This document shows positions 4,782 to 51,999 of a stretch of 64,000 bases of DNA, piece by piece. The DNA is from Candidatus Hydrogenedentota bacterium (GTDB lineage: Bacteria; Hydrogenedentota; Hydrogenedentia; Hydrogenedentales; JAEUWI01). The stretch lies in contig JAEUWI010000033.1 of assembly GCA_016791475.1 (NCBI GenBank), forward strand, positions 1 to 64,000. Direction: 5' to 3'. The notes below the pieces were generated by a model, which had not been told where the DNA came from, ran no database searches, and saw only the letters and a list, made by a program, of their open reading frames with translations. Positions within the stretch are counted from its first letter, which is position 1. The number at the start of each line of letters is the position of its first letter. Both the position numbers and the translations under genes were made by a program.

Positions 4782-6266
4782 CTAAGCTATGGTGAGTCCG
4801 TCCAAGGCCTCGGCGAATCGGGACTTGAGATCTTCCAGCGGTTCCAGACCGATGGATACCCGGACGAGCCAGCGAGATACCCCGTGGCTCTCCGCCCAGT
4901 CGAGCTCTTCAAAATGGGCCAGCAAGGTGTAGGGACAGGCGAGGGAGAAGTTGTTTCCGAGGCTCGGGCCCTTTGAGATTTGGAGGCGATCATAGAACCG
5001 GGGCGCGTTGGCCGGGCCGTTGTGGAGAACAACGGAAAACAGGCTGCCATAACCGCCGCCGGGTCGCATGATCTCCCCATAAGCGTCGCGCAGGCAATAC
5101 TTGGGATAGAACACCGAGTGGACCGCGGGCTGCCGCACGAGCCAGTCGCAGAGCGCTTCGGTCGTGGCATTGGACTTGAACACACGTTGTTCGAAATCCC
5201 GGGAATTCCGCTCCAACACGATCGCATCGTCGTCCCAGAAGAGCTCGTCAAAATTGCGGGCGGCCTCGGCCGCGAACGCGGCGCCAAAGGGCCCCCCGCC
5301 ATGGACCGCCAGCCCCCCCGCCATCACGTCACCCTCACCGGAGAAGGCCTTGGTCAGGCTGGTCACCACGATGTCCGCATGGGGAAACACGTTTACGTTG
5401 GCGTACGTGGCCGCCGTGTCGTCTACGATCAGAGGAACCCCGTGGTGGTGGGCGAGTTTCGCGAGGTCGGGCAGGCTGCAGCCCGTCAGGAGTGGGTTGC
5501 CGGGAAATTCGCAGACGATGGCGGAAATCGGCTGGGAGGCCAGGAGCGCGCCGACCATATCGAGATCATAGTCTCCCACGAAGTGACTTCCGGGTCCAGA
5601 GACCGTCTGCACCTTGAAAACATCGACGTAGGGAAAGCCCAACTGGATGCTTTTTGCGCCGGGGCGACGTTCCTGCACGAGGCGCATGGCCCGGCTCATC
5701 GCCGCCATGCCCGAGGGATAGAGCCACACGTGGTCGGGGGATTCACCCAGAAAAGCGCCGATGCGTTCGCGGATTATCTTCTTGGCTTCGGGGCCGCCGG
5801 GAGCGGCTTCGCGCCCTTCGAGGGCGGCTTCCGCCCGGCGCGAACTGATGATCTTCCCGAAATGCTGCCAGAAGGCCTTGGCATCGCGGAAACCCTCCTC
5901 GGGGAAGAAGACCCCATGGATCCGGGTCTCCGGGCAGAGTTCACGGCGCGCGTTGGCCCAGCCTCGCTCCATGAGGAAGAGAACACACCGGTCCGCGGCT
6001 TCCTCCGAGGGGAAGGCGAAACATCGCTCACCGGGCCGACCGTAGCGTTTCTCGAGCAGGGCGAAAAGTTCGGCGACCTGGGGATGAAGCACGAAACGGG
6101 GATAACCCAGTTGCATGGCGGAGACAATTTCCGGGCGGCCTTCCTCGTAGCCCACGGCATGATCCCAGCAGGGCAGGGCCACGGAGGTAGCGTGGGGCGA
6201 ATCCGGCAGGGGCTTCCCCAGGTCCTCGGCGCTCCAGCAGGGATCAATCAGAAGATTTCGGCTCAT
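4782..6266 (-). CDS. Cys/Met metabolism PLP-dependent enzyme (cystathionine gamma-synthase-like)
   Basis: Encodes 494 aa if it starts at the ATG at 6266 (MSRNLLIDPCW). The frame stays open 54 codons further upstream, but that part reads as low-quality sequence and overlaps likely promoter DNA. The PLP-binding aspartate lies in VPLIVDDTAAT and the Schiff-base lysine in TSLTKAFSGEGDVMAGG, both diagnostic of this fold-type I family. The protein is longer than typical MetB/MetC (about 390 aa). The extra roughly 100 N-terminal residues are predicted to be globular and not a signal. Similar long enzymes occur in O-succinylhomoserine-type sulfhydrylation or elimination, but the reaction is not decided by sequence. 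No clear ribosome site precedes the chosen start. Confidence 0.8.
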   Translation of the reverse strand: MSRNLLIDPCWSAEDLGKPLPDSPHATSVALPCWDHAVGYEEGRPEIVSAMQLGYPRFVLHPQVAELFALLEKRYGRPGERCFAFPSEEAADRCVLFLMERGWANARRELCPETRIHGVFFPEEGFRDAKAFWQHFGKIISSRRAEAALEGREAAPGGPEAKKIIRERIGAFLGESPDHVWLYPSGMAAMSRAMRLVQERRPGAKSIQLGFPYVDVFKVQTVSGPGSHFVGDYDLDMVGALLASQPISAIVCEFPGNPLLTGCSLPDLAKLAHHHGVPLIVDDTAATYANVNVFPHADIVVTSLTKAFSGEGDVMAGGLAVHGGGPFGAAFAAEAARNFDELFWDDDAIVLERNSRDFEQRVFKSNATTEALCDWLVRQPAVHSVFYPKYCLRDAYGEIMRPGGGYGSLFSVVLHNGPANAPRFYDRLQISKGPSLGNNFSLACPYTLLAHFEELDWAESHGVSRWLVRVSIGLEPLEDLKSRFAEALDGLTIA

Positions 6267-6420
6267 CAGTCGGGCGTACCATGGCGTAAAAGGGTGACAT
6301 GTTCCTACGCAGCCCCTCGATCCATGCACACATTGAAGGGGGCTTACGGGCCGCACACCATAGCACAATCGGGTGTTATTCCGGAAATGCGCACCCGAGG
6401 CGGAGTCCGGCGCCCGGAGA

Positions 6421-6439
6421 AGTGACATTTTTTGTCACT
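6421..6439. promoter_or_regulatory. Perfect 7-bp dyad, candidate operator
   Basis: AGTGACA and TGTCACT are separated by five T residues and lie in the gap between the divergent PLP enzyme and pilin genes. The symmetry would suit a homodimeric regulator or a small RNA hairpin. It lies about 95 bp upstream of the sigma-54-type promoter of the pilin gene, a usual distance for an enhancer site. No regulator can be named. Confidence 0.4.
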
Positions 6440-6532
6440 CAGTCCCCCTCAGGGGCGAAATAATGCGCATCGCCGGGTGGTCGCGAGAGGGGGCATATTG
6501 CTAACCATCCTGTTTACAACACCTTAAGCATC

Positions 6533-6548
6533 TGGCACGGCAAATGCT
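6533..6548 (+). promoter_or_regulatory. Sigma-54 (RpoN) type -24/-12 promoter of the pilin gene
   Basis: TGGCACG followed by four bases and ATGCT matches the consensus TGGCACG-N4-TTGCW with one mismatch, with GG and GC correctly spaced by 10 nt. Transcription would start near 6558, leaving a leader of about 67 nt before the pilin ATG. Sigma-54 control of major pilins through PilS/PilR is established in Pseudomonas, Myxococcus and Geobacter. No PilR-like gene lies nearby. Confidence 0.7.
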
Positions 6549-6625
6549 CTATCCTGGCAGGTCAATTGACCTCCAGGTACAGAATATTACCGCACTGATC
6601 ATAACGAACGGATAGGAGATGGGAT

Positions 6626-7051
6626 ATGAGCAAAAAAAGCGGCTTTACTCTGATTGAGCTCATGATTGTTGTCGGGATAATCGCCATCATTGCGGCCATC
6701 GCCATCCCGAATCTGCTGCGCTCGCGTATCCAGACCAACGAATCGGCGGCGATACAGAATCTGCGGACGGTGATGGGCGCACAGACGGCCTACAGCGCGA
6801 CGAACTATGTGTTCGCGACGGATTTCGATGACCTGACAACGGCCACCCCATCCTTCCTGGCGGGCGACTGGGATCCGGCCCGGGGCGGCTACAATTTTGT
6901 CCTCGGCGGTGATGTGGACAACTTTACGCTCAACGCCAACGCGAAGGAGTATGGCGTGACCGGGAACCACGGCTTTTACACCGATGCTTCCGGGGTCATT
7001 CGATTCGCCGTGATGGGCGATGCGGACGGATCGGGTGAGCCGATCGGCTGA
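6626..7051 (+). CDS. Type IV pilin / type II secretion pseudopilin
   Basis: Encodes 141 aa. The leader MSKKSG is followed by FTLIELMIVVGIIAIIAAIA, the textbook prepilin signature: cleavage after Gly6, N-methylated Phe+1 and the Glu+5 that aligns subunits. The remaining globular domain is small and ends in an acidic GDADGSGEPIG tail, possibly calcium-binding as in major pseudopilins. An AGGAG ribosome site precedes the ATG. A sigma-54-type promoter lies about 80 bp upstream and a terminator-like hairpin about 110 bp downstream, so the gene is probably monocistronic and strongly expressed. No prepilin peptidase or pilus ATPase is in the window. Major pilin and pseudopilin cannot be separated from this sequence. 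Confidence 0.9.
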   Translation: MSKKSGFTLIELMIVVGIIAIIAAIAIPNLLRSRIQTNESAAIQNLRTVMGAQTAYSATNYVFATDFDDLTTATPSFLAGDWDPARGGYNFVLGGDVDNFTLNANAKEYGVTGNHGFYTDASGVIRFAVMGDADGSGEPIG

Positions 7052-7160
7052 CTTACGGACTTGAGGATGGTGGTGGTGTCGGTGCGCACCCCATGCCGCG
7101 CCGATACTGGAAACCTGGACTCGGCTGCGCGCGGAAAAAGCGGGAGCAGACACATTGGGC

Positions 7161-7190
7161 AGGCCCCCCACTTCGGGGGGCTTCGTATTT
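7161..7190 (+). terminator. Intrinsic terminator-like hairpin after the pilin gene
   Basis: A 9-bp stem built on CCCCCC and GGGGGG around an ACTTC loop is followed by a weak T-rich stretch (CGTATTTCT). It separates the pilin gene from the oxidoreductase operon. Confidence 0.65.
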
Positions 7191-7276
7191 CTGGCAAGAC
7201 GGATGACTTTTTAATCCTTCCCGGCCATCGGGTACACTCCTCTACTGGCAACCCAAACGCAGTGAGGCAACGAGTC

Positions 7277-8383
7277 GTGGGCGAATCCGATCTGAAAGTT
7301 TCTTCCACTCAGGCTCTGGACGAGATTCCCGCGCCGGAGCTCCCCTGGCTTCCGCCCCGTGCGCCCCAGCCCATACCGGGAATCGGTCTCATCGGGTGCG
7401 GGGGCATCACGGCCTACCACCTCGACGCTTACCGCGACGCCGGTTTTCCCGTGCTGGCCTTCTGCGATGTCGATGAAGACCGTGCATCGGGTCGGCGGGA
7501 TACCTACAATCCTTCGGGCGCGGTCTACGCGGACTACGTCACCCTGCTCGCACACCCCGGTATCGAAGTGGTGGATATCGCCACCCATGTAGAGGTGAGG
7601 GGTGCCATGATCGAGGCCGCCCTTCGCGCGGGGAAGCATGTGCTGAGCCAGAAGCCCTTCACGCTGGACCTTGCCGAAGGCGAGCGGTTGATTGCGCTGG
7701 CGGAGGAGAGAAATCTCAAGCTCGCCGTCAATCAGAACGGCCGCTGGGCCCCCCACTTCAGCTACATGCGCCAGGCGATCGCCGCGGGAGTCATCGGCGA
7801 GGTAAACGCCGTCCATCTGGCGGTGCACTGGGACCATGCCTGGACCGAGACTACGGTCTTTAACGACATACCGCACCTGATTCTGTACGACTTCGCGATT
7901 CACTGGTTCGACATGCTGACCTGCTTCATGGGCGATACCGCGCCCTTGCGTGTCTTTGCTTCGGAAGCGCGGACGGCACGCCAGACCAACAAACCGCCCA
8001 TGCTGGGTCAAGTTATTGTGGAGTACCCAAACGCTCAGGCCACGCTGGTGTTTGATGCGGCCACGAAATTCGGCGCGACAGACCACAGTTTCATCGCGGG
8101 CACGCTCGGCACCCTCCAAAGCACGGGCCCCGACTTAAGCCACCAGGCGGTAACGCTGTACAACGAGCACGGTATCGCACGCCCCGCCTTAACCGGAGAA
8201 TGGTTCAAGAACGGCTTCGAAGGAACCATGGCGGAATTGCTGTGCGCCATCGCCGAGAACCGCCCCCCAGCTAACAGCGCCCGAAACAATTTGAGGAGTT
8301 TGGCGTTGTGTTTCGCGGCGATTGAAAGCGCCCGTAGTCACCAGCCCCAGGTTCCGGGTAACATCCGGCGCATGCCAAACTGA
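7277..8383 (+). CDS. Gfo/Idh/MocA family oxidoreductase
   Basis: Encodes 368 aa from a GTG start at 7277 with GAGG 9 nt upstream; another in-frame GTG at 7262 is possible. The Rossmann motif GIGLIGCGGITAYHLDAY is followed by the family motif VLSQKPFTLDLAEGERL, where the Lys of EKP-type motifs contacts the nicotinamide and substrate. Catalysis is usually NAD(P)-dependent oxidation or reduction of a sugar or cyclitol. A TIM-barrel isomerase-like gene follows after 25 bp, a pairing typical of inositol or keto-sugar catabolism. No signal peptide is visible, so it is probably cytosolic. Confidence 0.88.
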   Translation: MGESDLKVSSTQALDEIPAPELPWLPPRAPQPIPGIGLIGCGGITAYHLDAYRDAGFPVLAFCDVDEDRASGRRDTYNPSGAVYADYVTLLAHPGIEVVDIATHVEVRGAMIEAALRAGKHVLSQKPFTLDLAEGERLIALAEERNLKLAVNQNGRWAPHFSYMRQAIAAGVIGEVNAVHLAVHWDHAWTETTVFNDIPHLILYDFAIHWFDMLTCFMGDTAPLRVFASEARTARQTNKPPMLGQVIVEYPNAQATLVFDAATKFGATDHSFIAGTLGTLQSTGPDLSHQAVTLYNEHGIARPALTGEWFKNGFEGTMAELLCAIAENRPPANSARNNLRSLALCFAAIESARSHQPQVPGNIRRMPN

Positions 8384-41418: not shown

Positions 41419-42000
41419 TCAGTTGAGCGCGATTCCCTGGAGCGCCTCATTGACGGCAACCAAGTCAAAGAATTCGGGATCCAGATCGTCTCCGACCCAG
41501 TCCAGAATCTCCTGTCGCTGCTGGTGCGCGGGGTCGGCCAGAATGACCAGCATCTGCTGGTAGCCGTGAATTCCACCGCTGTCCTCCATCGGGCAGGCCC
41601 GCTTGCCCGTTACGCATTCGGGATGATCGAGTACGGCGGTATTGCTCTCGATCTTCTCCACGACGATTTCGTGTTCCCAACCGTCTCCGAAATCATACAG
41701 ATACACCATCTTGTCTTTTTCCAGCGGGAGCACATCCTCAAGGGAGATATCACCCGCGTCGGCCAGACTGAGTTGCCACGACGCGTCCAGTTCCGTCAGA
41801 TCGGTGTAGCGGGTGTCGTTCTTCTCAAACTGAAACAGGTGGCAGTTCTGCCAGCCCATGGCGGACTGGATGGCATAGTGCAGGTCGAGCAGAGAGAATC
41901 CGCCGGCGATTTTCAGACGCCGCCAAATCGGCGGTTTCGATCCGTGGAGGGTAATTTTGAGGGTGTAGAGTTTCTCGGCCTCTAACTTCTTCGGTGCCAT
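41419..42000 (-). CDS. Plasmid pRiA4b ORF-3-like protein
   Basis: Encodes 193 aa of PF07929-like type: LKITLHGSKPPIWRRLKIAG at the N-terminus, then LLDLHYAIQSAMGW, YLYDFGDGWEHEI and CPMEDSGGIHGYQ. The biochemical role of the family is unknown, although it recurs next to mobile and stress genes. I start at the ATG at 42000, 5 bp after the rtcR stop; a longer frame overlaps rtcR and is less likely. GGAAAG inside the end of rtcR serves as ribosome site. The tight spacing makes it the second gene of the rtcR operon and a candidate partner of that system. Confidence 0.8.
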   Translation of the reverse strand: MAPKKLEAEKLYTLKITLHGSKPPIWRRLKIAGGFSLLDLHYAIQSAMGWQNCHLFQFEKNDTRYTDLTELDASWQLSLADAGDISLEDVLPLEKDKMVYLYDFGDGWEHEIVVEKIESNTAVLDHPECVTGKRACPMEDSGGIHGYQQMLVILADPAHQQRQEILDWVGDDLDPEFFDLVAVNEALQGIALN

Positions 42001-42005
42001 GCGGC

Positions 42006-43610
42006 TCACTTTCCGGTAATGCGTTGCCAATTCAGGTCGAACTTCGCCAGGTACTTTCCCAGCCGATCCGCATCGTTGGTTGATTTTCTTTTGGTTCGGG
42101 AGACAGAGAATAGTTGCCGGCCCGCCTCGGAGAGGCTGCGGCATTCGCGACAGACGCGAACTACTTCCGCCAATTGTACTCGGTCGAAGGGGTCAATGTC
42201 GCCAATCTCCTCGGGACTCAATATCAGCTCCAGAATCTGCCGCCCCGGATCGTGGGCCGGACGGCTCCAGTCCCGCTTCAAGCGCTCCACCTCCCGCTCC
42301 ACTTCCGCCACCGTAATTCGGCCGCCCGAGGCCAGGGTGCTCATGCGCGTTACCGCCGCGCCCAGATCGCGAAAGTTGCCGTTCCACCGGCCCTCCGGCC
42401 CTTTGGCAAACTTCAAAAAGCGCTTCAACGCTTCTTTGTTGAACTGGACATGACTCCCCCGACGCTGGGCCGTCTTCTCCAGTTCGTAGTCCAAATTCGG
42501 GGCAATGTCTTCCTTGCGATCGCGAAGGCCGGGCAGAGAAAAAGACCACAGATTGATGCGCGCCAGCAAGTCTTCTCGAAATCGCCCCTGCCGAACGCCT
42601 TCGGACAGATCGCGATTGCTGCCGCAGATGAGCTGAAAGTCACTCTGGGCGGGCAGGTCCGCACCGACGGGCAGGAAGCGCTTTTCTTCGATGGCCTGCA
42701 GGAGCATGGCCTGCTCATCCATGCCGAGCTCCCCCACTTCGTCCAGGAATAGCAGGCCACGGTCGGCCGTGCGCAACAGCCCCGGACGATCACTGGTCGC
42801 CCCGGTGAAGGCGCCCCGCTTGTGACCGAAGAGTGTGGCCATCGCCGTATCTCCCCGCAGGGTGGCGCAGTTTACCGAAACAAAGGGGCCCTGGAGACGC
42901 TGGCGGAGCTGCTTCAGCTCGTAGATCTGTCGTGCGAGCTGAGACTTCCCCGCGCCGGTCGGGCCTGAGAGGAGAATCGGCTGGCGACTGTTCACCGCTA
43001 CCTTCTCCACTTCTTCGATCAGGGCGTTGAAAGCCGCGTTGCGCGTATTGATACCAGATTTAAGAAGCGATACATCGTCGCGCTGGTCCTGTTTAAAGCG
43101 CTTGGCAAGCTGATCGTAGCGGGAGAGATCGAGGTCGATGATTCCATAGCGACCCGGACTGCGCGGCTCGTCCCCGCGCCCCGGCCCCGTCTGCACGAGG
43201 CGTCCGGGTATATACCGGGCCTCGGTCAGGAGAAAGAGACAAATCTGGGCCACATGGGTGCCCGTGGTCAGATGAACGAGGTATTCCTCTTTCTCCAAAT
43301 CAAACGGATAGGCCCGGGCGAAGTCATGGAGGACGGAATAGACTTCCACGAAATCCCACGGATCGTCGCAATGCACATCGTGAATCCGCACGGACGTATC
43401 CGGGCAGGCGGAGCCGATGTCGCGTTGCACACGTTCTGCGGTGCGCTGGTGCACGGGGTCCGAGAGGAGCTCGAATCGGTCGACGCGCAAATCGGGCTGT
43501 CTGCAGAGATCGACGGAGGGTCGCCACTTTTCCCAGCGCTTTTCCGCGCGACCAAGTCGATCGAGGATGGTGCCGAGGAAGCCAATTACGACTATTTTCT
43601 TTTTAGCCAT
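42006..43610 (-). CDS. rtcR: RtcR-type sigma-54-dependent transcription activator
   Basis: Encodes 534 aa, close to E. coli RtcR (about 530). The N-terminal domain (about 1-180: VVIGFLGTILD, FELLSDPVHQRTAERVQRDI, EEYLVHLTTGTHVAQICLFLL) is the CARF-like sensor that responds to RNA ends with 2',3'-cyclic phosphate in E. coli. The AAA+ part has Walker A GPTGAGKS (216-223), the sigma-54 contact loop GAFTGA (266-271) and Walker B LLFLDE. A C-terminal region with an Arg/Lys-rich tail probably binds DNA. It faces a sigma-54 promoter 140 bp away that drives structured RNA and a slipin gene. In E. coli and Salmonella RtcR drives rtcBA; no RtcB or RtcA is encoded here. Confidence 0.92.
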   Translation of the reverse strand: MAKKKIVVIGFLGTILDRLGRAEKRWEKWRPSVDLCRQPDLRVDRFELLSDPVHQRTAERVQRDIGSACPDTSVRIHDVHCDDPWDFVEVYSVLHDFARAYPFDLEKEEYLVHLTTGTHVAQICLFLLTEARYIPGRLVQTGPGRGDEPRSPGRYGIIDLDLSRYDQLAKRFKQDQRDDVSLLKSGINTRNAAFNALIEEVEKVAVNSRQPILLSGPTGAGKSQLARQIYELKQLRQRLQGPFVSVNCATLRGDTAMATLFGHKRGAFTGATSDRPGLLRTADRGLLFLDEVGELGMDEQAMLLQAIEEKRFLPVGADLPAQSDFQLICGSNRDLSEGVRQGRFREDLLARINLWSFSLPGLRDRKEDIAPNLDYELEKTAQRRGSHVQFNKEALKRFLKFAKGPEGRWNGNFRDLGAAVTRMSTLASGGRITVAEVEREVERLKRDWSRPAHDPGRQILELILSPEEIGDIDPFDRVQLAEVVRVCRECRSLSEAGRQLFSVSRTKRKSTNDADRLGKYLAKFDLNWQRITGK

Positions 43611-43737: not shown

Positions 43738-43765
43738 CAACTGGAAAGTTGGCACGGCTCCTGCC
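43738..43765 (+). promoter_or_regulatory. Sigma-54 promoter facing away from rtcR
   Basis: TGGCACG at 43750-43756, four bases, then CTGCC (43761-43765) gives a perfect -24 box and the invariant GC at -12, with GG and GC 10 nt apart. Transcription should start near 43776. A CAACT-GGAA-AGTTG dyad (43738-43751) overlaps the -24 edge, and TTGCAGCAACTTGCA lies further upstream, as possible RtcR sites. The position in the gap divergent from rtcR is as in known rtc operons. Confidence 0.85.
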
Positions 43766-44010
43766 TTAGAGAAGTCGTTGCCGATGCAGCCTCCGGGAGC
43801 ACGGCAACCCCGAAAGTTTAATCAAGATATTCAGTGAAGCCCCGCAAGGCCGGAAGGTACGCCGGGTTGAACTGAACGCTTGCCTCTAGGAGGCAGGCGC
43901 ACATTGCTGACGCCCCGCGACCGGCGGCGCAGTTCGCCCATCGTATCCCCTGGGATGCGGGCTTGGCGGGCGGCGTACCGTGAACGGGTTCTGAACGCTG
44001 GTGTCAGGAA

Positions 44011-44078
44011 GGGTAATGGCCCCGGATGGGCCGGGTGGCCTGGCCACCACACAGGTTCGACTCCTGTATTACCAACCA
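44011..44078 (+). ncRNA. tRNA-like module 1 with encoded CCA
   Basis: GGGTAAT (44011-44017) pairs with ATTACCA (44068-44074) in six of seven positions (1-72 is G-A). It is followed by A73 and CCA (44076-44078). A full T-arm ACAGG-TTCGACT-CCTGT (44051-44067) precedes the 3' strand. Between acceptor and T-arm are two 5-bp hairpins: GGCCC-CGGAT-GGGCC, whose loop offers the GG needed to dock on a T-loop, and GGTGG-CCTGG-CCACC in place of the anticodon arm. It is 68 nt and about eight nt too short for a decoding tRNA, so it is a tRNA mimic. Confidence 0.7.
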
Positions 44079-44143
44079 CGGGTAGCTCAGTTGGTAGAGC
44101 ATCGGACCAAGGATCCGAGAGTCGCGGGTTCGATTCCCGCCCC
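44079..44143 (+). ncRNA. tRNA-like module 2 with truncated acceptor
   Basis: Canonical D-arm (GCTC-AGTTGGTA-GAGC, 44085-44100), anticodon-like arm (TCGGA-CCAAGGA-TCCGA, 44102-44118), 5-nt variable loop and T-arm (GCGGG-TTCGATT-CCCGC, 44124-44140) are all present. The acceptor, however, is only GGG (44080-44082) with CCC (44141-44143), and the next bases form a separate hairpin. The nominal anticodon is AAG, but position 33 is C and not the universal U, and there is no long variable arm as tRNA-Leu would need. It starts right behind the CCA of module 1. A decoding function is unlikely. Confidence 0.75.
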
Positions 44144-44523
44144 ACACGCCTCGAAAGCGTGTTACCTCGTTCCGCAAGGAACACCAGAATAGAACCGGAA
44201 GGGTGCGGGCGGCGAACGGGTTGCCGGACGTCCCGGACCGCGCCATTCGTGGCGCGCGAAAGGAAGAACGGCAGCACCTCAGGCACCATGCGGCGCGCGG
44301 ATGCCGCCGTGTGCGAAACGCCAGGAAGCGTGGAACTCCCTCGGGAGACCAGCGCGGAAAGGCGGACCTTCGGGCCGCGTACTCCTCCGGGAATACGCGG
44401 GTAACACACGGCTCAAGCAGCGCCCCGTGCCGGAGGTGTGAAGGCCCGTCGTCGCCCGTGCCCCAAGGGTTAAAAATCATCATCAGGACCGATGAGGTCT
44501 GAACATACAAGGAGGTACACCCC

Positions 44524-45657
44524 ATGACGAACGTAATCACGGCTATTAAGGAACGCATCCTCAAGCGGGTCCATGTGCGCAAGCACGAATTCGGGCTTCG
44601 CGTTGACGAAGGCGAATTCACGAAGGTCCTCGGGCCCGGCGTGTACCGCGTAATCGACCCCATGAACCGGGTCACCGTGGACATCGCAAGCGAACGGGAC
44701 GTTTACCTTCAGCATCGCCAGCTTGACGTGATCGTGAAGTCGGGCGCGCTGGAGGGCCGCGCGCTGGTTCTGGAACTTCAGGACAACGAGCGGGCGATCA
44801 TCTCGGTAAATGGCCGGGTCCACAGCGTCATCGGCGCGGGCCTCTATGTGCTGCCGAACACCTTCAACAAGGTGGCGGCGGAAATTCTCACGACCGACGC
44901 GGTGCGGTTTGAGCACGCGAACCTGAACAACGTTCTGGCGGCTGCCGGTGCGGTGGCTGTCTTCGACAAGCATCAGGTGGACGAAGGTCGGGTGGGTCTG
45001 CTCTACCTCAACGGCGTGTTTCAGGAAGTGCTGACGCCGGGCCGCTATGCCTTCTTCAAGGGCGTGGGCGCGGTGAAGATTCAACTGGTCGATGTACGCG
45101 AGCGTGTACTGGACGTAGGCGGCCAGGAGATCATGACCGAGGACAAGGTTACGCTGCGGCTGAACGCCGTGGCGACGTATCGGGTGTGCGATCCGCGCCT
45201 CTATGCCGATGTGGCGGAGGATGCGGTGCAGGCCCTGTACCGGGATGCCCAGTTGGCGCTCCGGGCCACGGTGGGCACGCGCACCCTCGACACCCTGCTG
45301 GCGGAGAAGGACGCTGTAACCGATGAACTGGCGGAGGCCCTGCGCAAGCGGGCGGCCACGCTGGGTATTGAAGTGCTCAGCGCCGGTATCCGGGACATCA
45401 TCCTGCCGGGCGAAATGAAGGAACTGATGAACCGGGTGACCGAGGCGAAGAAGGCGGCGGAAGCCAACCTCATCGTCCGGCGCGAGGAAACGGCCGCCAT
45501 GCGGAACCAGGCGAACACGGCGAAGGTGTTGGAAAACAACCCGACGCTGATGCGTCTGCGGGAGCTGGAGGTGCTCGAAAAGATCGCGGTTCACGCGAAG
45601 CTGAATGTTGTGCTGGGCGAAAAGGGCCTGGCCGACCGGGTGGTAAACCTGCTGTAG
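44524..45657 (+). CDS. Slipin/SPFH (band 7) protein without membrane anchor
   Basis: Encodes 377 aa with AAGGAGG 8 nt before the ATG. The SPFH core (about 183-300) reads VKIQLVDVRERVLDVGGQEI, VTLRLNAVATYRV and ALRATVGTRTLDTLL, followed by a long helical segment EAKKAAEANLIVRREETAAMRNQANTAKVLE typical of slipins. Ordinary slipins begin with a membrane hairpin; here none is seen. Instead three related beta-modules lie at residues 20-41, 88-109 and 154-175, each ending G-x-G-x-Y or P-G-x-Y. This form is known beside RtcR in other bacteria, but its role is not established. It is the only protein gene of the transcript that begins with the structured RNA. Confidence 0.85.
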   Translation: MTNVITAIKERILKRVHVRKHEFGLRVDEGEFTKVLGPGVYRVIDPMNRVTVDIASERDVYLQHRQLDVIVKSGALEGRALVLELQDNERAIISVNGRVHSVIGAGLYVLPNTFNKVAAEILTTDAVRFEHANLNNVLAAAGAVAVFDKHQVDEGRVGLLYLNGVFQEVLTPGRYAFFKGVGAVKIQLVDVRERVLDVGGQEIMTEDKVTLRLNAVATYRVCDPRLYADVAEDAVQALYRDAQLALRATVGTRTLDTLLAEKDAVTDELAEALRKRAATLGIEVLSAGIRDIILPGEMKELMNRVTEAKKAAEANLIVRREETAAMRNQANTAKVLENNPTLMRLRELEVLEKIAVHAKLNVVLGEKGLADRVVNLL

Positions 45658-45714: not shown

Positions 45715-45875
45715 GGCCGTTCAATGACCCCCTATGCCCGACGGCAGCATTTTTCCTGCCTACCGCTCCCTGCGCGCGCCCCGCCTGTGGTACAATCCCC
45801 GGTCCGCGCCGCGCTTGCCCCTGGCATCGCGTCTGGCCGGCTTTATTGCGACCCGATGGATACCCAGCAGCGCCC

Positions 45876-48554
45876 ATGACCCATGAACTTCGACTTACGC
45901 CCGGCGGCCAGTTGCGCTGGCAGACCCTGAACGACGACGCGAAGCACCTGGCCCCCCTGCAGAAGCACTTCGCCCACGACTGGCGCGAAGGGCTTTTCTC
46001 TCTTGCCGCCGCAAAGTACGACGTGGGCCCCTACCCTACCCTGATATTCTGGCAGGAATTCGCCAGCCAGTACCTCACGGCGCTGTGCCATGTGGCGCCC
46101 TCGGCCCGAGACTGTTCTGTCCCGCCGCCGGACCAGGAGACCGCCGAGACGCTCGCGATTAACGCCCCTCCCATGGTGGGTGGCGAATACCTTACCCCCG
46201 GGATGCTCGTGCGCATCTGGAAATCCCTGGATCGCTGGGTGGTGGACCAGTCCACGCTGGATGATGGACTGGACGCCTTTCTGCACGCCTGGGCCCCGAA
46301 ATGGCGGCAGGTGGGCCAGGTTTGCTTTCACCTGGCGGAGAATCCCGCCGATCCGGAGCGTCCCTTCGCCTTTTTGAGCACCTATGCCCAAGGCTTCAGC
46401 ACCGATGGCTCCCTCAAGCATCAGCCGCTGCGCAATGCCCTCGAGCAGTTTGCCGGCGACAATAAACGAAGCGCCCTGCTCAAACTGCTCACGCCGGTCG
46501 AGCGCGCGGCGAAGGCGTGCCCCTGGCTTCGCGAGATGGTGGACTCAGGCGCTATCTACCACGCCACGGCGTGGACCGCGTCGGAGGCGTACCGGCTCCT
46601 CCTCAGTGCGGAAACCCTGGAAGAATGCGGTCTTGCCCTGCGCCTGCCCAACTGGTGGAAGAAGCGGCCCCGTCCCCAGATAGCGGTTACGATTGGTGAA
46701 CAGCGCAGCACCACCCTGGGCGCATCGGCGGTGCTGGACTTCAAGATGGAAGTCGCGCTGGGGGACGAAGCCCTGACGCGCGACGAGGTGGACATGCTCC
46801 TGGAAGGGGGCGATGGACTCGTGTTTCTTCGGGGACAGTGGATCGAAGTAAGCAAGGCCAAATTGAGTGAGGCGCTGGCCCACTGGCAGGTGATCGAGCG
46901 CGAAGCACAGGATGGCCACATCGACTTTATCGAGGGCATGCGTCTTCTCGCGGGCGCCTCGCGCGACCTTCGCCCCGACGAACACGCCGAGGAGGAGCGC
47001 CCCTGGGTTCACGTGGCGGCGGGGGAGGCGATGCACCGCATACTGACGGGCCTGCGTGACCCGGCCAATCTCGAGCACTTGGGTTGCCCGCCGGGCCTCA
47101 AGGGCGAACTGCGCCCCTACCAGCGCGATGGCTTGAACTGGCTCCACTTCCTCTCTGAACTGGGCCTGGGCGCCTGCCTCGCCGACGATATGGGCCTGGG
47201 AAAGACGGTGCAAGTGCTCGCGGCCATGCTGGTGCGCCGCAAGAGCGACGCGACGGTGGAGCGCCCGCCCGCACTGCTGGTCGTTCCCGCATCGCTCCTG
47301 GGGAACTGGAAGAGCGAATCCAACCGCTTTACACCCGCACTCCGCCTGGCGATCCTTCATACTTCGGAGATGGAAGTGGATTCCATGGACGCCATCTCGG
47401 ACGATCCGGAAGGTCGCCTCCGGGGGACCGATCTGGTCATGACCACCTATGGCATGGTGACGCGGCTCGGCTGGCTGTCGGAGTTTGAATGGGACACGAT
47501 CATCCTGGACGAGGCGCAGGCCATCAAGAACCCCGCCACGCGCCAGAGCAAAGCGATCAAGAAGCTGCGCGGCGGACGCCGCATAGCCCTCACCGGCACC
47601 CCCATCGAAAACCGCCTGGGCGACCTCTGGTCCCTCTTCGACTTTCTGAATCCGGGGTTGCTGGGGTCCGCAACGCAGTTCAAGGGCTTCCTCAAAAGTC
47701 TGGAGGCGCGGGAGCACGACCACTACGCCCCCCTGCGCAAACTGGTGAATCCCTATATCCTGCGACGACTCAAGACGGATCGGGCGATTATTTCGGACCT
47801 TCCCGACAAGACGGAAACGTCGCGTTTCTGCAACTTGACGCCCCTCCAGATTAAACTCTATCAGCACACCGTCAACGCCATGGCCAACGCGCTGGAGTCC
47901 TCCGACGGCATGGCCCGTCGCGGCCTGGTGCTTAAGACCCTCACGCGGCTGAAGCAGATCTGCAATCATCCGAGTCAGCTCACCGGCGATGGCGGCTACA
48001 GCGCGAAAGCGAGCGGTAAATTTCAGCGGCTGGCCGAGATCTGCGAAGAGCTCGCCGAACGTCAGGAGCGCGTACTTATATTTACGCAGTTTCGCGAGAT
48101 CATTCCGGCGCTGGGCGATCACCTGGCTTCCCTCTTCGGTCGCCCCGGCCTGGCGCTTCACGGGGGCACCAGCGTGGGGAAACGGCGCGCCTTGGTGGAT
48201 CAATTCCAAGAGGAAGACGGCCCGCCCTTCTTCATCCTGTCCATCAAAGCCGGTGGCACCGGTCTCAACCTCACCGCCGCCTCGCACGTGATACATTTCG
48301 ACCGCTGGTGGAACCCCGCGGTGGAAAACCAGGCCACGGACCGGGCATTTCGCATCGGCCAGCGAAAGAACGTGCTGGTTCACAAGTTCGTGACACTGGG
48401 CACCATCGAAGAGCGTATCGACGCGCTGATCGAAGAGAAGCGCCAGCTCTCCGCCGAGATATTGTCGAACGACGGCGAGATTAATTTGACCGAGCTTTCC
48501 AACGATGAACTTATGAACCTTGTACGCCTTGACGTGAACCGCGCCGCGATTTGA
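45876..48554 (+). CDS. SNF2/RapA-family DEAD-like helicase
   Basis: Encodes 892 aa from the ATG at 45876. The SNF2_N ATPase motifs are ADDMGLGKTVQVLA (Walker A), IILDEAQAIKNP (DEAQ box) and LTGTPIENRLGDLWSLFDFLNPGLLG. The C-terminal helicase part has LIFTQFREI, SIKAGGTGLNLTAASHVIHF and DRWWNPAVENQATDRAFRIGQ. The N-terminal 400 residues are the helical region typical of the bacterial SNF2 family with a SWIM partner. The following gene begins 29 bp later and carries the SWIM zinc finger, confirming the pair. Role: ATP-dependent DNA translocation in repair or transcription; the detailed function in bacteria is uncertain. Confidence 0.92.
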   Translation: MTHELRLTPGGQLRWQTLNDDAKHLAPLQKHFAHDWREGLFSLAAAKYDVGPYPTLIFWQEFASQYLTALCHVAPSARDCSVPPPDQETAETLAINAPPMVGGEYLTPGMLVRIWKSLDRWVVDQSTLDDGLDAFLHAWAPKWRQVGQVCFHLAENPADPERPFAFLSTYAQGFSTDGSLKHQPLRNALEQFAGDNKRSALLKLLTPVERAAKACPWLREMVDSGAIYHATAWTASEAYRLLLSAETLEECGLALRLPNWWKKRPRPQIAVTIGEQRSTTLGASAVLDFKMEVALGDEALTRDEVDMLLEGGDGLVFLRGQWIEVSKAKLSEALAHWQVIEREAQDGHIDFIEGMRLLAGASRDLRPDEHAEEERPWVHVAAGEAMHRILTGLRDPANLEHLGCPPGLKGELRPYQRDGLNWLHFLSELGLGACLADDMGLGKTVQVLAAMLVRRKSDATVERPPALLVVPASLLGNWKSESNRFTPALRLAILHTSEMEVDSMDAISDDPEGRLRGTDLVMTTYGMVTRLGWLSEFEWDTIILDEAQAIKNPATRQSKAIKKLRGGRRIALTGTPIENRLGDLWSLFDFLNPGLLGSATQFKGFLKSLEAREHDHYAPLRKLVNPYILRRLKTDRAIISDLPDKTETSRFCNLTPLQIKLYQHTVNAMANALESSDGMARRGLVLKTLTRLKQICNHPSQLTGDGGYSAKASGKFQRLAEICEELAERQERVLIFTQFREIIPALGDHLASLFGRPGLALHGGTSVGKRRALVDQFQEEDGPPFFILSIKAGGTGLNLTAASHVIHFDRWWNPAVENQATDRAFRIGQRKNVLVHKFVTLGTIEERIDALIEEKRQLSAEILSNDGEINLTELSNDELMNLVRLDVNRAAI

Positions 48555-48583
48555 GTTTCCCCCATGTGTGGAAAGGCTTAGCT

Positions 48584-49585
48584 ATGTCGTTCTGGAGAAA
48601 GTACGTCCCTGTCGCTCAACGCCGGGCCAAGGCCAAGAGGGAAATCAAGGGCCTGCTGAAGAAGGGGCAAACGCCTCAACCCGTCTCGGTGGAAGGCCGG
48701 GCCATGGCCACGAGCTTCTGGGGAAAAGCCTGGTGCGACCACCTGGAGTCTTTCTCCGACTACTCGAATCGCCTGCCCAGGGGCCGGACCTATGCCCGAA
48801 ACGGGTCCATATGTCACCTGGAAATCTCGTCGGGCCGCATCGATGCCATCGTATCTGGATCAAACCTCTATGAGATTTCGATAACGATCACGCCACTCCC
48901 AAGGGACCGTTGGAACGCCATCGTCCAGAAAGCCGCGGGTGGAATCGGTTCTGTCATCGAACTGCTCCGCGGCGAACTCTCTCACGAGGTCATGAGGCTC
49001 GTCACCGACAAATCGGAAGGGCTCTTTCCCAAACCCGCAGAGATAAAGCTCAAGTGCTCCTGCCCCGACTGGGCGGACCTCTGTAAGCATCTCGCGGCGG
49101 TGCTCTACGGAGTGGGCAATCGCCTGGACACCCGGCCCGACCTGCTTTTTCTACTCCGGGGCGTGGATCCGCAGGAGCTGATCTCCACGAGCATCGCACT
49201 TCCCGATAGCGCAAGAGCAACGCACGCAATACCGGACAGCGCACTCTCCGGCCTCTTCGGCATCACCCTGGACCTGACGCCGCCGACAGAGAATGTAGCC
49301 CCGAAATCATTACGGAGTCGGCCAGTCGCAACCGCAAGAAAAGTGACTCCGACGCCCCGGAATCCCGCCAGGCGTGTGAAGCCCATCACCGGCCCCGCTA
49401 TACAACGACTCCGCAAGCGACTTGGCATGACACCGGAGGCCTTCGCGAAGACACTGGGCGTCTCCCTCGCCTCGGTCCTGCGCTGGGAACAAATCGCCGG
49501 CGAGGTCCGACTGCACGCGGCGTCACGCGCAGCCCTGGAAACTTTAGTCAGTCAACCCAAAGTCCCCAGGAAAATAAAGCCCTGA
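48584..49585 (+). CDS. SWIM zinc-finger protein with C-terminal HTH
   Basis: Encodes 333 aa. The N-terminal half (FWGKAWCDHLESFSDYSNRLPRGRTYARNG) is the usual SWIM-protein N-terminal region. CSCPDWADLCKHLAAVLYG gives the CxC...CxH zinc ligands. After a Pro/Arg-rich linker a helix-turn-helix of the XRE or MqsA-like kind appears at the end (IQRLRKRLGMTPEAFAKTLGVSLASVLRWEQ), an addition not always found in this family. It likely partners the SNF2 helicase encoded 29 bp upstream and adds DNA binding. AAGG precedes the ATG at 48584. Confidence 0.88.
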   Translation: MSFWRKYVPVAQRRAKAKREIKGLLKKGQTPQPVSVEGRAMATSFWGKAWCDHLESFSDYSNRLPRGRTYARNGSICHLEISSGRIDAIVSGSNLYEISITITPLPRDRWNAIVQKAAGGIGSVIELLRGELSHEVMRLVTDKSEGLFPKPAEIKLKCSCPDWADLCKHLAAVLYGVGNRLDTRPDLLFLLRGVDPQELISTSIALPDSARATHAIPDSALSGLFGITLDLTPPTENVAPKSLRSRPVATARKVTPTPRNPARRVKPITGPAIQRLRKRLGMTPEAFAKTLGVSLASVLRWEQIAGEVRLHAASRAALETLVSQPKVPRKIKP

Positions 49586-51699: not shown

Positions 51700-51743
51700 C
51701 CATCCCTCGGGGCCCCGGATGCATGGCACACCCAGTGTTAAAC

Positions 51744-51942
51744 GCGATTGGCAGGTCTTCGGACTTTCAGGCGCGTCCCGTGGGGGGGGCCTACTCCGCG
51801 CGGCTTCCCAGTCCTGTATCGCCAGGGCCAGTGCCTTTGTTTCAGACTCCAGAGAGTCCGCTGCGCGTTTCGTTCCTGATTACCGCTGCGGGGCAGTTCC
51901 GGATTCACACCGGATTCCCTCTTAGCGTGCCGGGAACCCAAG
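51744..51942 (-). promoter_or_regulatory. Cobalamin (B12) riboswitch
   Basis: Read on the minus strand the region has the diagnostic blocks of the adenosylcobalamin aptamer in order: AGAGGGAATCCGGTG, TGAATCCGGAACTGCCCCGC followed by GCGGTAA, and near the 3' end AGTCCGAAGACCTGCC. The long P6-P10 arm lies between. It sits 135 bp upstream of the secreted protein start at 51609, on the same strand, with a terminator in between. The class binds coenzyme B12 and normally shuts down genes of B12 uptake or synthesis. Confidence 0.93.
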
Positions 51943-51999
51943 ATCCCGGCGCGAACCAACACCCTAAGAATACGGGAACAGGACTCGGGCTGTCAATAG

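What the first reader, a model, noticed from the sequence alone, without database searches (positions are those of the whole stretch)
43776..44480. Large ornate RNA with long-range pairing and GNRA/UUCG tetraloops
Seen: 9-bp helix joining 43856-43864 and 43971-43979, GCAA and two UUCG hairpins, at least seven further stable stems, and no coding frame with a ribosome site. Motifs CCGGAAGG and GAACGGGTT recur at both ends, which suggests internal duplication. I do not recognise the fold as a known Rfam class.
Basis: seen in the sequence. Interest (0 to 1): 0.8.

Follow-up and report, generated by a model that had tools for sequence, protein, structure and literature searches.

The report
tRNA-mimicking RNA of slipin repair operons
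A roughly 700-base non-coding RNA that carries tRNA look-alike modules is switched on by a tRNA-damage sensor (RtcR) just ahead of a membrane-scaffold-type protein gene (slipin); the same kind of RNA sits ahead of such genes in many bacterial phyla and in about 30% of complete E. coli genomes, is not in Rfam, and in Bacillota its tRNA part is circularly permuted.

Summary
It is the 5' non-coding part of a sigma54 transcription unit: divergent RtcR (tRNA-damage sensor), one TTGGCAC-N5-CTGC promoter at 43749, ~700-nt RNA, then a slipin/Band_7 gene. Homologous RNAs precede slipin genes in Planctomycetota, Desulfobacterota, Gammaproteobacteria, Spirochaetes and Bacillota. They share tRNA-like modules and a 3' domain with GGAUACCG and YUNAARC..YUCCG motifs, held by a covarying helix (7 of 7 pairs with two-sided changes; 0/500 shuffles). 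RtcR loci with slipin have it (10/10); those without do not (0/7). In Bacillota the tRNA-like module is circularly permuted. About 1,625 of 5,426 complete E. coli genomes carry an unannotated version. Best mechanism: a damage-induced tRNA mimic working with the slipin ring as scaffold or nuclease decoy in tRNA repair. The RNA class is shown; the mechanism is inferred. A Band-7-associated 'tRNA-like molecule' was, from memory, reported in 2016, so the association is partly known.

The parts
42006..43610 (-). rtcR: sigma54-dependent activator with CARF-type sensor domain, divergent from the RNA
   Evidence: Pfam RtcR E=3.5e-81 and Sigma54_activat E=5.6e-48; PADLOC RtcR--CARF_AAA_HTH E=3e-251
43749..43764 (+). 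sigma54 (-24/-12) promoter TTGGCACGGCTCCTGC; transcription start expected near 43774-43776
   Evidence: only match of TTGGCACN5YTGC in the window, expectation 0.03; GG-N10-G(C/T) sites at the corresponding place in L036, L037, L045, L047, L049, L146 and E. coli
43774..44480 (+). structured non-coding RNA / leader of the slipin mRNA
   Evidence: z-score -7.2; homologues with covariation upstream of slipin genes
43927..43976 (+). 5' hairpin: 43927-43930/43973-43976 plus 43935-43939/43968-43972, followed by the conserved CGUUCCGUGNACGGGUUCU-type motif
   Evidence: same hairpin in 10 distinct sequences, congeners, other phyla and E. coli, 93% paired vs 76% for shuffled arms, 0/5000; sequences
44012..44073 (+). 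tRNA-like module 1: acceptor GGUAAU/AUUACC, two non-canonical arms, T arm 44050-44067
   Evidence: read from sequence; weak tRNA-Sec match 19.7 bits over exactly this stretch
44080..44143 (+). tRNA-like module 2: D arm 44085-44100, anticodon arm 44102-44118, T arm 44124-44140, no complementary 7-bp acceptor
   Evidence: Rfam tRNA 50.4 bits, model positions 5-66 of 71; ARAGORN finds no tRNA gene
44144..44182 (+). hairpins H1 (44144-44149/44157-44162) and H2 (44169-44173 GCAA 44178-44182), then CCAGAA
   Evidence: read from sequence; counterparts in L036, L037, L038, L049
44201..44220 (+). 5' strand of helix P-A closing the 3' domain
   Evidence: complementary to 44445-44463; counterpart helix in the Bacillota alignment 72% paired with changes on both sides in 3 of 6 pairs
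44292..44298 (+). 5' strand of core helix P-D, followed by conserved GGAUNCCG at 44299-44306
   Evidence: 7 pairs with 44417-44424 (A44419 bulged); in A1, 95.8% of cells paired and all 7 pairs with two-sided changes
44412..44428 (+). conserved CUCAAGC-N3-GCCCCG motif holding the 3' strand of P-D
   Evidence: found ~71-220 nt after GGAUNCCG in the 61 motif-bearing loci examined
44445..44463 (+). 3' strand of helix P-A
   Evidence: as for 44201-44220
44524..45657 (+). slipin / SPFH-Band_7 gene with two extra N-terminal beta repeats, preceded by AAGGAGGT
   Evidence: Pfam Band_7 E=7.3e-31; AlphaFold model pLDDT 84, Foldseek to stomatin E=2.7e-16

Best explanation
The region is the non-coding 5' part of an RtcR/sigma54-driven stress transcript and belongs to a widespread, Rfam-absent class of slipin-associated RNAs. 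Each has one or more tRNA-like modules and a 3' domain; a 5' hairpin is also seen in Gram-negative and Planctomycetota members. Shown by computation: conservation, covariation, tRNA-likeness, placement upstream of a slipin gene. Inferred: tRNA breakage activates RtcR, RtcR with sigma54 makes this RNA plus slipin, the slipin oligomer binds the RNA, and the tRNA-like elbow and anticodon loop let the particle engage tRNA-acting enzymes (RtcB, nucleotidyltransferases, anticodon nucleases) as a scaffold or decoy while tRNAs are repaired. It would be the slipin counterpart of the Ro60/Y-RNA pair found in other RtcR operons. My confidence in the RNA class itself is about 0.95; the number below is for class plus mechanism.
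For: RtcR and Band_7 flank it, with one sigma54 promoter. Homologous RNAs sit upstream of slipin genes across phyla. RtcR loci with slipin have the RNA (10 of 10); RtcR loci without slipin do not (0 of 7). P-D covariation 0/500 shuffles, slid controls 30-50% vs 87% paired; 5' hairpin 0/5000. 109 viral pattern matches mostly lack P-D pairing (mode 1 of 5) while slipin-linked ones have 4-5 of 5. tRNA-like modules in normal or permuted order, anticodon loops of 7 nt with A37 in 26 of 27, varied anticodons. RtcB lies within a few kb in many loci and elsewhere in the window's own genome. RtcR responds to tRNA fragments, and Y RNAs with tRNA-like domains occur in the sister operon (PMC7790460).
Against: No expression or binding data. 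The anticodons vary, D and acceptor parts are often degenerate, and the E. coli and Citrobacter versions keep only a recognisable T arm, so a decoy for one particular nuclease is unlikely. rtcB is not in the window's operon. The association with slipin could also reflect cis control of slipin translation.
Confidence: 0.55

Rival explanations
1. Cis-regulatory leader: the tRNA-like and 3' domains sense tRNA fragments, uncharged tRNA or a tRNA-binding protein and control translation or transcript stability of the downstream slipin; the RNA has no role in trans.
For: The RNA precedes the slipin reading frame and shares its transcript here; size, complexity and placement next to the ribosome site fit a regulatory leader.
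Against: In L045 rtcB lies between RNA and slipin. Gaps of hundreds of bases between RNA and slipin start occur in L036 and L037. Very large for a leader; no Rfam riboswitch or T-box match.
Confidence: 0.22
2. It is a source of real tRNAs: a damage-induced tRNA array (normal or permuted, the latter matured by RtcB ligation) that replaces destroyed tRNAs.
For: Intact tRNA arrays sit near the RNA in L038 and L064; the Anabaena trn tRNA operon, rtcB and a slipin share the repressor TrcR (PMC10272220); permuted modules score as tRNAs after rotation in silico.
Against: The window's modules are not called tRNAs and module 2 lacks an acceptor. Acceptor linkers show no constant CCA. D arms are incomplete in many Paenibacillus copies. 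E. coli has only a T arm.
Confidence: 0.12
3. A decaying tRNA cluster plus an ordinary structured leader without function.
For: Degenerate tRNAs are visible in the window.
Against: Compensatory changes across phyla and invariant motifs, and presence in about 30% of E. coli genomes.
Confidence: 0.03
4. A free-standing large ornate RNA of the GOLLD/ROOL/OLE sort that happens to lie upstream of slipin.
For: Size and complexity; GOLLD is also known for association with tRNAs (own knowledge).
Against: No match to any Rfam family other than tRNA in this RNA or the related loci tested; close linkage to slipin genes.
Confidence: 0.05

Closest known systems
SPFH/Band-7 modules with a 'novel tRNA-like molecule' in RNA-repair systems (Burroughs and Aravind 2016, NAR gkw722; abstract recalled from memory, paper not held)
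   Same: Band-7 gene in RNA-repair context with a tRNA-like non-coding RNA.
   Different: Whether that work described the 5' and 3' domains, the P-D helix, the permuted order or the E. coli locus could not be checked; none is in Rfam 15.
Bacterial Y RNAs (YrlA/YrlB) with Rsr/Ro60 in rsr-yrlBA-rtcBA operons
   Same: RtcR-controlled RNA-repair operon; RNA with a tRNA-like module next to a ring-forming protein gene.
   Different: Partner is SPFH, not TROVE; Rfam YrlA scores only 19.6 bits against a cut-off of 69; RNA is several times larger.
Circularly permuted tRNA genes of red and green algae and archaea (review PMC3978253)
   Same: T half precedes the D/anticodon half in Bacillota members; tandem duplication with loss of outer segments is the proposed origin, and the window still has tandem modules.
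   Different: Found here inside a larger structured RNA in bacteria, often with incomplete D arms; no evidence of ligation or maturation to a working tRNA. The window's own copies are in normal order.
tmRNA, including permuted two-piece tmRNA
   Same: Bacterial RNA combining a tRNA-like part with other domains; permutation known.
   Different: D arm and anticodon arm present; no ARAGORN or Rfam tmRNA match.
Vault particle (major vault protein plus vault RNA)
   Same: SPFH-fold protein with preceding beta repeats paired with an RNA; the full slipin model hits MVP with E down to 4.5e-10.
   Different: N-terminal repeats alone do not retrieve MVP; no sequence match; likeness is a lead only.

Membership tests
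RtcR-regulated RNA repair operon | divergent RtcR and sigma54 promoter | tested here: met
RtcR-regulated RNA repair operon | rtcB or rtcA in the activated operon | tested here: not met
   no rtcB next to slipin in the window; one RtcB elsewhere in the genome. Met in relatives L045, L049, L143, L146
tRNA (RF00005) | complete cloverleaf with acceptor stem | tested here: not met
   module 2 matches model positions 5-66 of 71 only; ARAGORN: no gene
Y RNA YrlA (RF02553) | match above Rfam gathering score | tested here: not met
   19.6 bits vs 69
Y RNA YrlA (RF02553) | linked Rsr/Ro60 (TROVE) gene | tested here: not met
   the neighbouring proteins scanned have no TROVE domain
Slipin-associated tRNA-like RNA class (this work) | GGAUNCCG and YUNAARC..YCCG motifs joined by helix P-D upstream of a slipin | tested here: met
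   window GGCGCGC/GC(A)GCGCC with 44299-44306 and 44412-44427
Band-7-associated tRNA-like molecule of Burroughs and Aravind 2016 | identity with the published molecule | not testable with these tools
   paper not held
Circularly permuted tRNA genes | T arm and acceptor 3' strand precede acceptor 5' strand, D arm and anticodon arm | tested here: not met
   not met in the window; met in Bacillota and other relatives: 37 of 102 T loops give a tRNA after rotation vs 3 of 306 shuffles, 27 with explicit arms
Circularly permuted tRNA genes | processing and ligation to a functional tRNA | not testable with these tools
   needs RNA analysis
GOLLD, ROOL, OLE, HEARO and other Rfam ornate RNAs | Rfam match | tested here: not met
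tmRNA | match to tmRNA models | tested here: not met
Vault-like particle | MVP-type repeats preceding SPFH shoulder | tested here: inconclusive
   full model hits MVP, N-terminal repeats alone do not

The most novel reading that the evidence does not exclude
A bacterial ribonucleoprotein, analogous to Ro60/Y RNA or vaults, in which a soluble SPFH ring carries a large tRNA-mimic RNA. The mimic's anticodon loops act as bait for anticodon nucleases and as substrate or gauge for RtcB. Its tRNA module has been circularly permuted in Bacillota through tandem duplication, which would be the first natural permuted tRNA-like molecule in bacteria outside tmRNA.
Probability: 0.3. Interest if true: 0.92.

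Novelty: new variant of a known kind. Interest (0 to 1): 0.76.

Why it matters
RtcR/RtcB operons respond to tRNA damage, yet how the repair machinery is organised is open. A conserved RNA partner of slipin, widespread and present in about a third of complete E. coli genomes, makes the question testable in a standard organism. The permuted tRNA-like module suggests a route (tandem modules in the window, permuted ones in Bacillota) by which permuted tRNAs may arise, and an Rfam family could be built from the alignments.

Tried and rejected
Rfam at low stringency: nothing but tRNA above noise. Phage origin: 109 viral pattern hits behave like chance; phage records hold no comparable slipin. Strict pattern search over 386 genomes found 3 (window genome, one congener, one unchecked) with 0 in the reversed-pattern controls listed, so the pattern is specific but misses variants such as G003. 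Vault identity: not upheld by the N-terminal model. The Burroughs and Aravind paper and the MAFFT structural mode were unavailable. My first P-D table was off by one column; the corrected count is. The 5' hairpin arms were picked by eye around conserved anchors, so its 93% carries some selection bias. No covariance model was built, so the family's full range was not measured.

Full report
What is in the sequence. The stretch 43774-44480 lies between rtcR on the minus strand (42006-43610; Pfam RtcR E=3.5e-81) and a Band_7/slipin gene on the plus strand (44524-45657; E=7.3e-31). The only TTGGCACN5YTGC site of the 64-kb window is at 43749-43764 (expected 0.03), where a sigma54 promoter should be; start of transcription would be near 43775. 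The slipin ATG follows AAGGAGGT. The 707-nt stretch folds to -342 kcal/mol, z -7.2 against 20 shuffles.

tRNA-like modules. Rfam matches tRNA at 44080-44143 with 50.4 bits but only model positions 5-66 of 71, and ARAGORN reports no tRNA. The D, anticodon and T arms are canonical in outline; the acceptor strands do not pair. Just upstream, 44012-44073 forms a second cloverleaf with a 6-bp acceptor GGUAAU/AUUACC, a T arm, and two odd arms. So the window holds two tandem tRNA-like modules. No other family is found above noise even at relaxed thresholds.

Relatives. A search with the slipin protein found the same architecture in two congeners (L036, L037) and in Planctomycetota, Desulfobacterota and others. 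In RtcR loci from other genomes the RNA is present where slipin belongs to the operon (window, L036, L037, L045, L047, L049, L143, L146, and between rtcB and slipin in L156 and L161). It is absent where sigma54 leads straight into rtcB, rtcA or rsr without slipin (L142, L144, L145, L157-L160). That is 10 of 10 against 0 of 7 (Fisher p about 5e-5, my arithmetic); presence was judged by eye, and L145 and L159 are short contigs, so slipin further away is not excluded there.

A conserved RNA class. Upstream of slipin genes in Bacillota, Spirochaetes, Planctomycetota, Desulfobacterota, Gammaproteobacteria and the window's lineage, a GGAUNCCG motif lies downstream of the T loop and is followed, typically about 120 nt later, by YUNAARC-N2-4-YYCCG (61 loci). 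The two motifs are joined by helix P-D. On an alignment of 27 trimmed Bacillota sequences (A1), P-D is paired in 95.8% of cells with two-sided changes in all seven pairs. The whole three-helix structure scores 0.566 against 0.253 in shuffles (0/500), and sliding the partners by 1-3 columns drops pairing from 87% to 30-50%. In the window P-D is 44292-44298 with 44417-44424 (A44419 bulged), enclosed by P-A, 44201-44220 with 44445-44463. A control set of 109 viral contigs that match the motif pattern shows mostly 0-3 of 5 P-D pairs, against 4-5 of 5 in 38 of 41 slipin-linked matches.

5' domain. Before the tRNA-like module a hairpin GCGC.../...GYGUUCC recurs from the window's genus to Planctomycetota, Trichlorobacter, E. 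coli and Citrobacter. In 10 distinct arm pairs 93% of 70 cells pair, against 76% after shuffling arms (0/5000). The arms were chosen around conserved anchors, which favours pairing somewhat. The latter is supported only within the genus, so I regard it as at most an alternative.

Permuted tRNA-like modules. In Gram-negative and planctomycetal members the module runs acceptor-D-anticodon-T-acceptor. In Paenibacillus and relatives, clostridia, flavobacteria and some spirochaetes it runs T arm, acceptor 3' strand, short loop, acceptor 5' strand, D arm, anticodon arm. Example L116: AGGGGTTCGAATCCCCT-ATCGCA-CTTCCAC-TGCGAT-TA-GCTCAATGGTAGAGC-A-CTCGACTGTTAATCGAG. Rotating the sequence in silico makes ARAGORN call a tRNA at 37 of 102 T loops, against 3 of 306 controls with shuffled downstream sequence; 20 score in normal order. 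Two of the 37 (L038) come from a tandem array of real tRNAs, and others in tandem arrays (L143, L097, L098) may be ambiguous for the same reason. An explicit arm search finds T arm plus adjacent acceptor hairpin at 60 T loops in 51 loci, and 27 with a 5-bp/7-nt anticodon arm, A37 in 26, and anticodons of many kinds. D arms are incomplete in many Paenibacillus copies. The 2014 review of permuted tRNA genes (PMC3978253) treats permuted tRNAs outside bacteria, names tmRNA as the bacterial permuted case, and proposes tandem duplication followed by loss of outer segments, which fits tandem modules in the window and permuted ones elsewhere. I found no report of bacterial permuted tRNA-like molecules in the held library, which is incomplete.

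E. coli. A plasmid search led to slipin plus nucleotidyltransferase genes at the yjbD-lysC locus; Citrobacter has rtcR directly adjacent. Of 5,426 complete E. coli genomes, 1,624 carry at least 80% of the 526-bp stretch and 1,627 match the Citrobacter RNA; no feature is annotated there in the genomes listed. The RNA has a sigma54 site, the 5' hairpin, a T arm and 3' conserved blocks, without recognisable D and anticodon arms. Homology to the window RNA rests on placement, the 5' hairpin, the T arm and a CUGCUUCCGC-type block, so it is likely but less firm than for the others.

Partner protein. The slipin model (pLDDT 84) has an SPFH domain like stomatin (Foldseek E=2.7e-16) and a long C-terminal helix. 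Ahead of it are two extra beta repeats where stomatins have a membrane anchor. Generic slipins found align mostly from residue ~150 on. The major vault protein is also hit, but the N-terminal repeats alone do not retrieve it, so vault kinship is only a lead.

Mechanism. RtcR operons respond to tRNA fragments, and in a sister operon Y RNAs with a tRNA-like domain accompany Rsr (PMC7790460). By analogy the RNA described here is most likely made upon tRNA damage and acts with slipin as a tRNA-mimicking scaffold or decoy. Transcription under RtcR is inferred from position and promoter; binding to slipin and any decoy role are inference. A cis-regulatory leader is the strongest rival; real tRNA supply is weaker because acceptors and D arms are often broken.

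Known or new. From memory, Burroughs and Aravind (2016) noted SPFH/Band-7 modules with a cognate novel tRNA-like molecule; the paper is not held. The association is therefore probably known in outline. The full RNA architecture, the covarying core, the permuted order and the E. coli locus are not in Rfam 15 or in the papers I could read.

Noticed in passing
L064:1111-3181: Paenibacillus allorhizosphaerae has an array of about 20 tRNA genes a few kb upstream of its slipin RNA; L038 (G096) has eight tRNAs directly before the tRNA-like module.
   Followed up: partly
L278:8487-9413: A zeta toxin family gene lies beside the E. coli slipin-nucleotidyltransferase pair (strain C2); same in L279.
   Followed up: no
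L051, L053, L054, L055 near 6001-7311: Some planctomycetal slipins match the N-terminal part of the window slipin twice, suggesting an extra N-terminal repeat.
   Followed up: no
window 45846-49585: SNF2 helicase (DUF3670) and SWIM zinc-finger gene pair downstream of slipin; the helicase scores against PADLOC ZorD and DpdE models, probably by generic helicase similarity.
   Followed up: no
window 51733-51975: Cobalamin riboswitch (84 bits) on the minus strand ahead of a protein with a long (GE)n repeat tract.
   Followed up: no
window 41419-42144: Plasmid pRiA4b ORF-3-like protein gene next to the 3' end of rtcR on the same strand.
   Followed up: no
G000 contig 22, 105888-106961: The window's genome encodes one RtcB far from this locus.
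   Followed up: no
L036, 3.4 kb rtcR-slipin gap: In a congener an extra gene-like stretch lies between rtcR and the RNA, and repeats lie between RNA and slipin.
   Followed up: no
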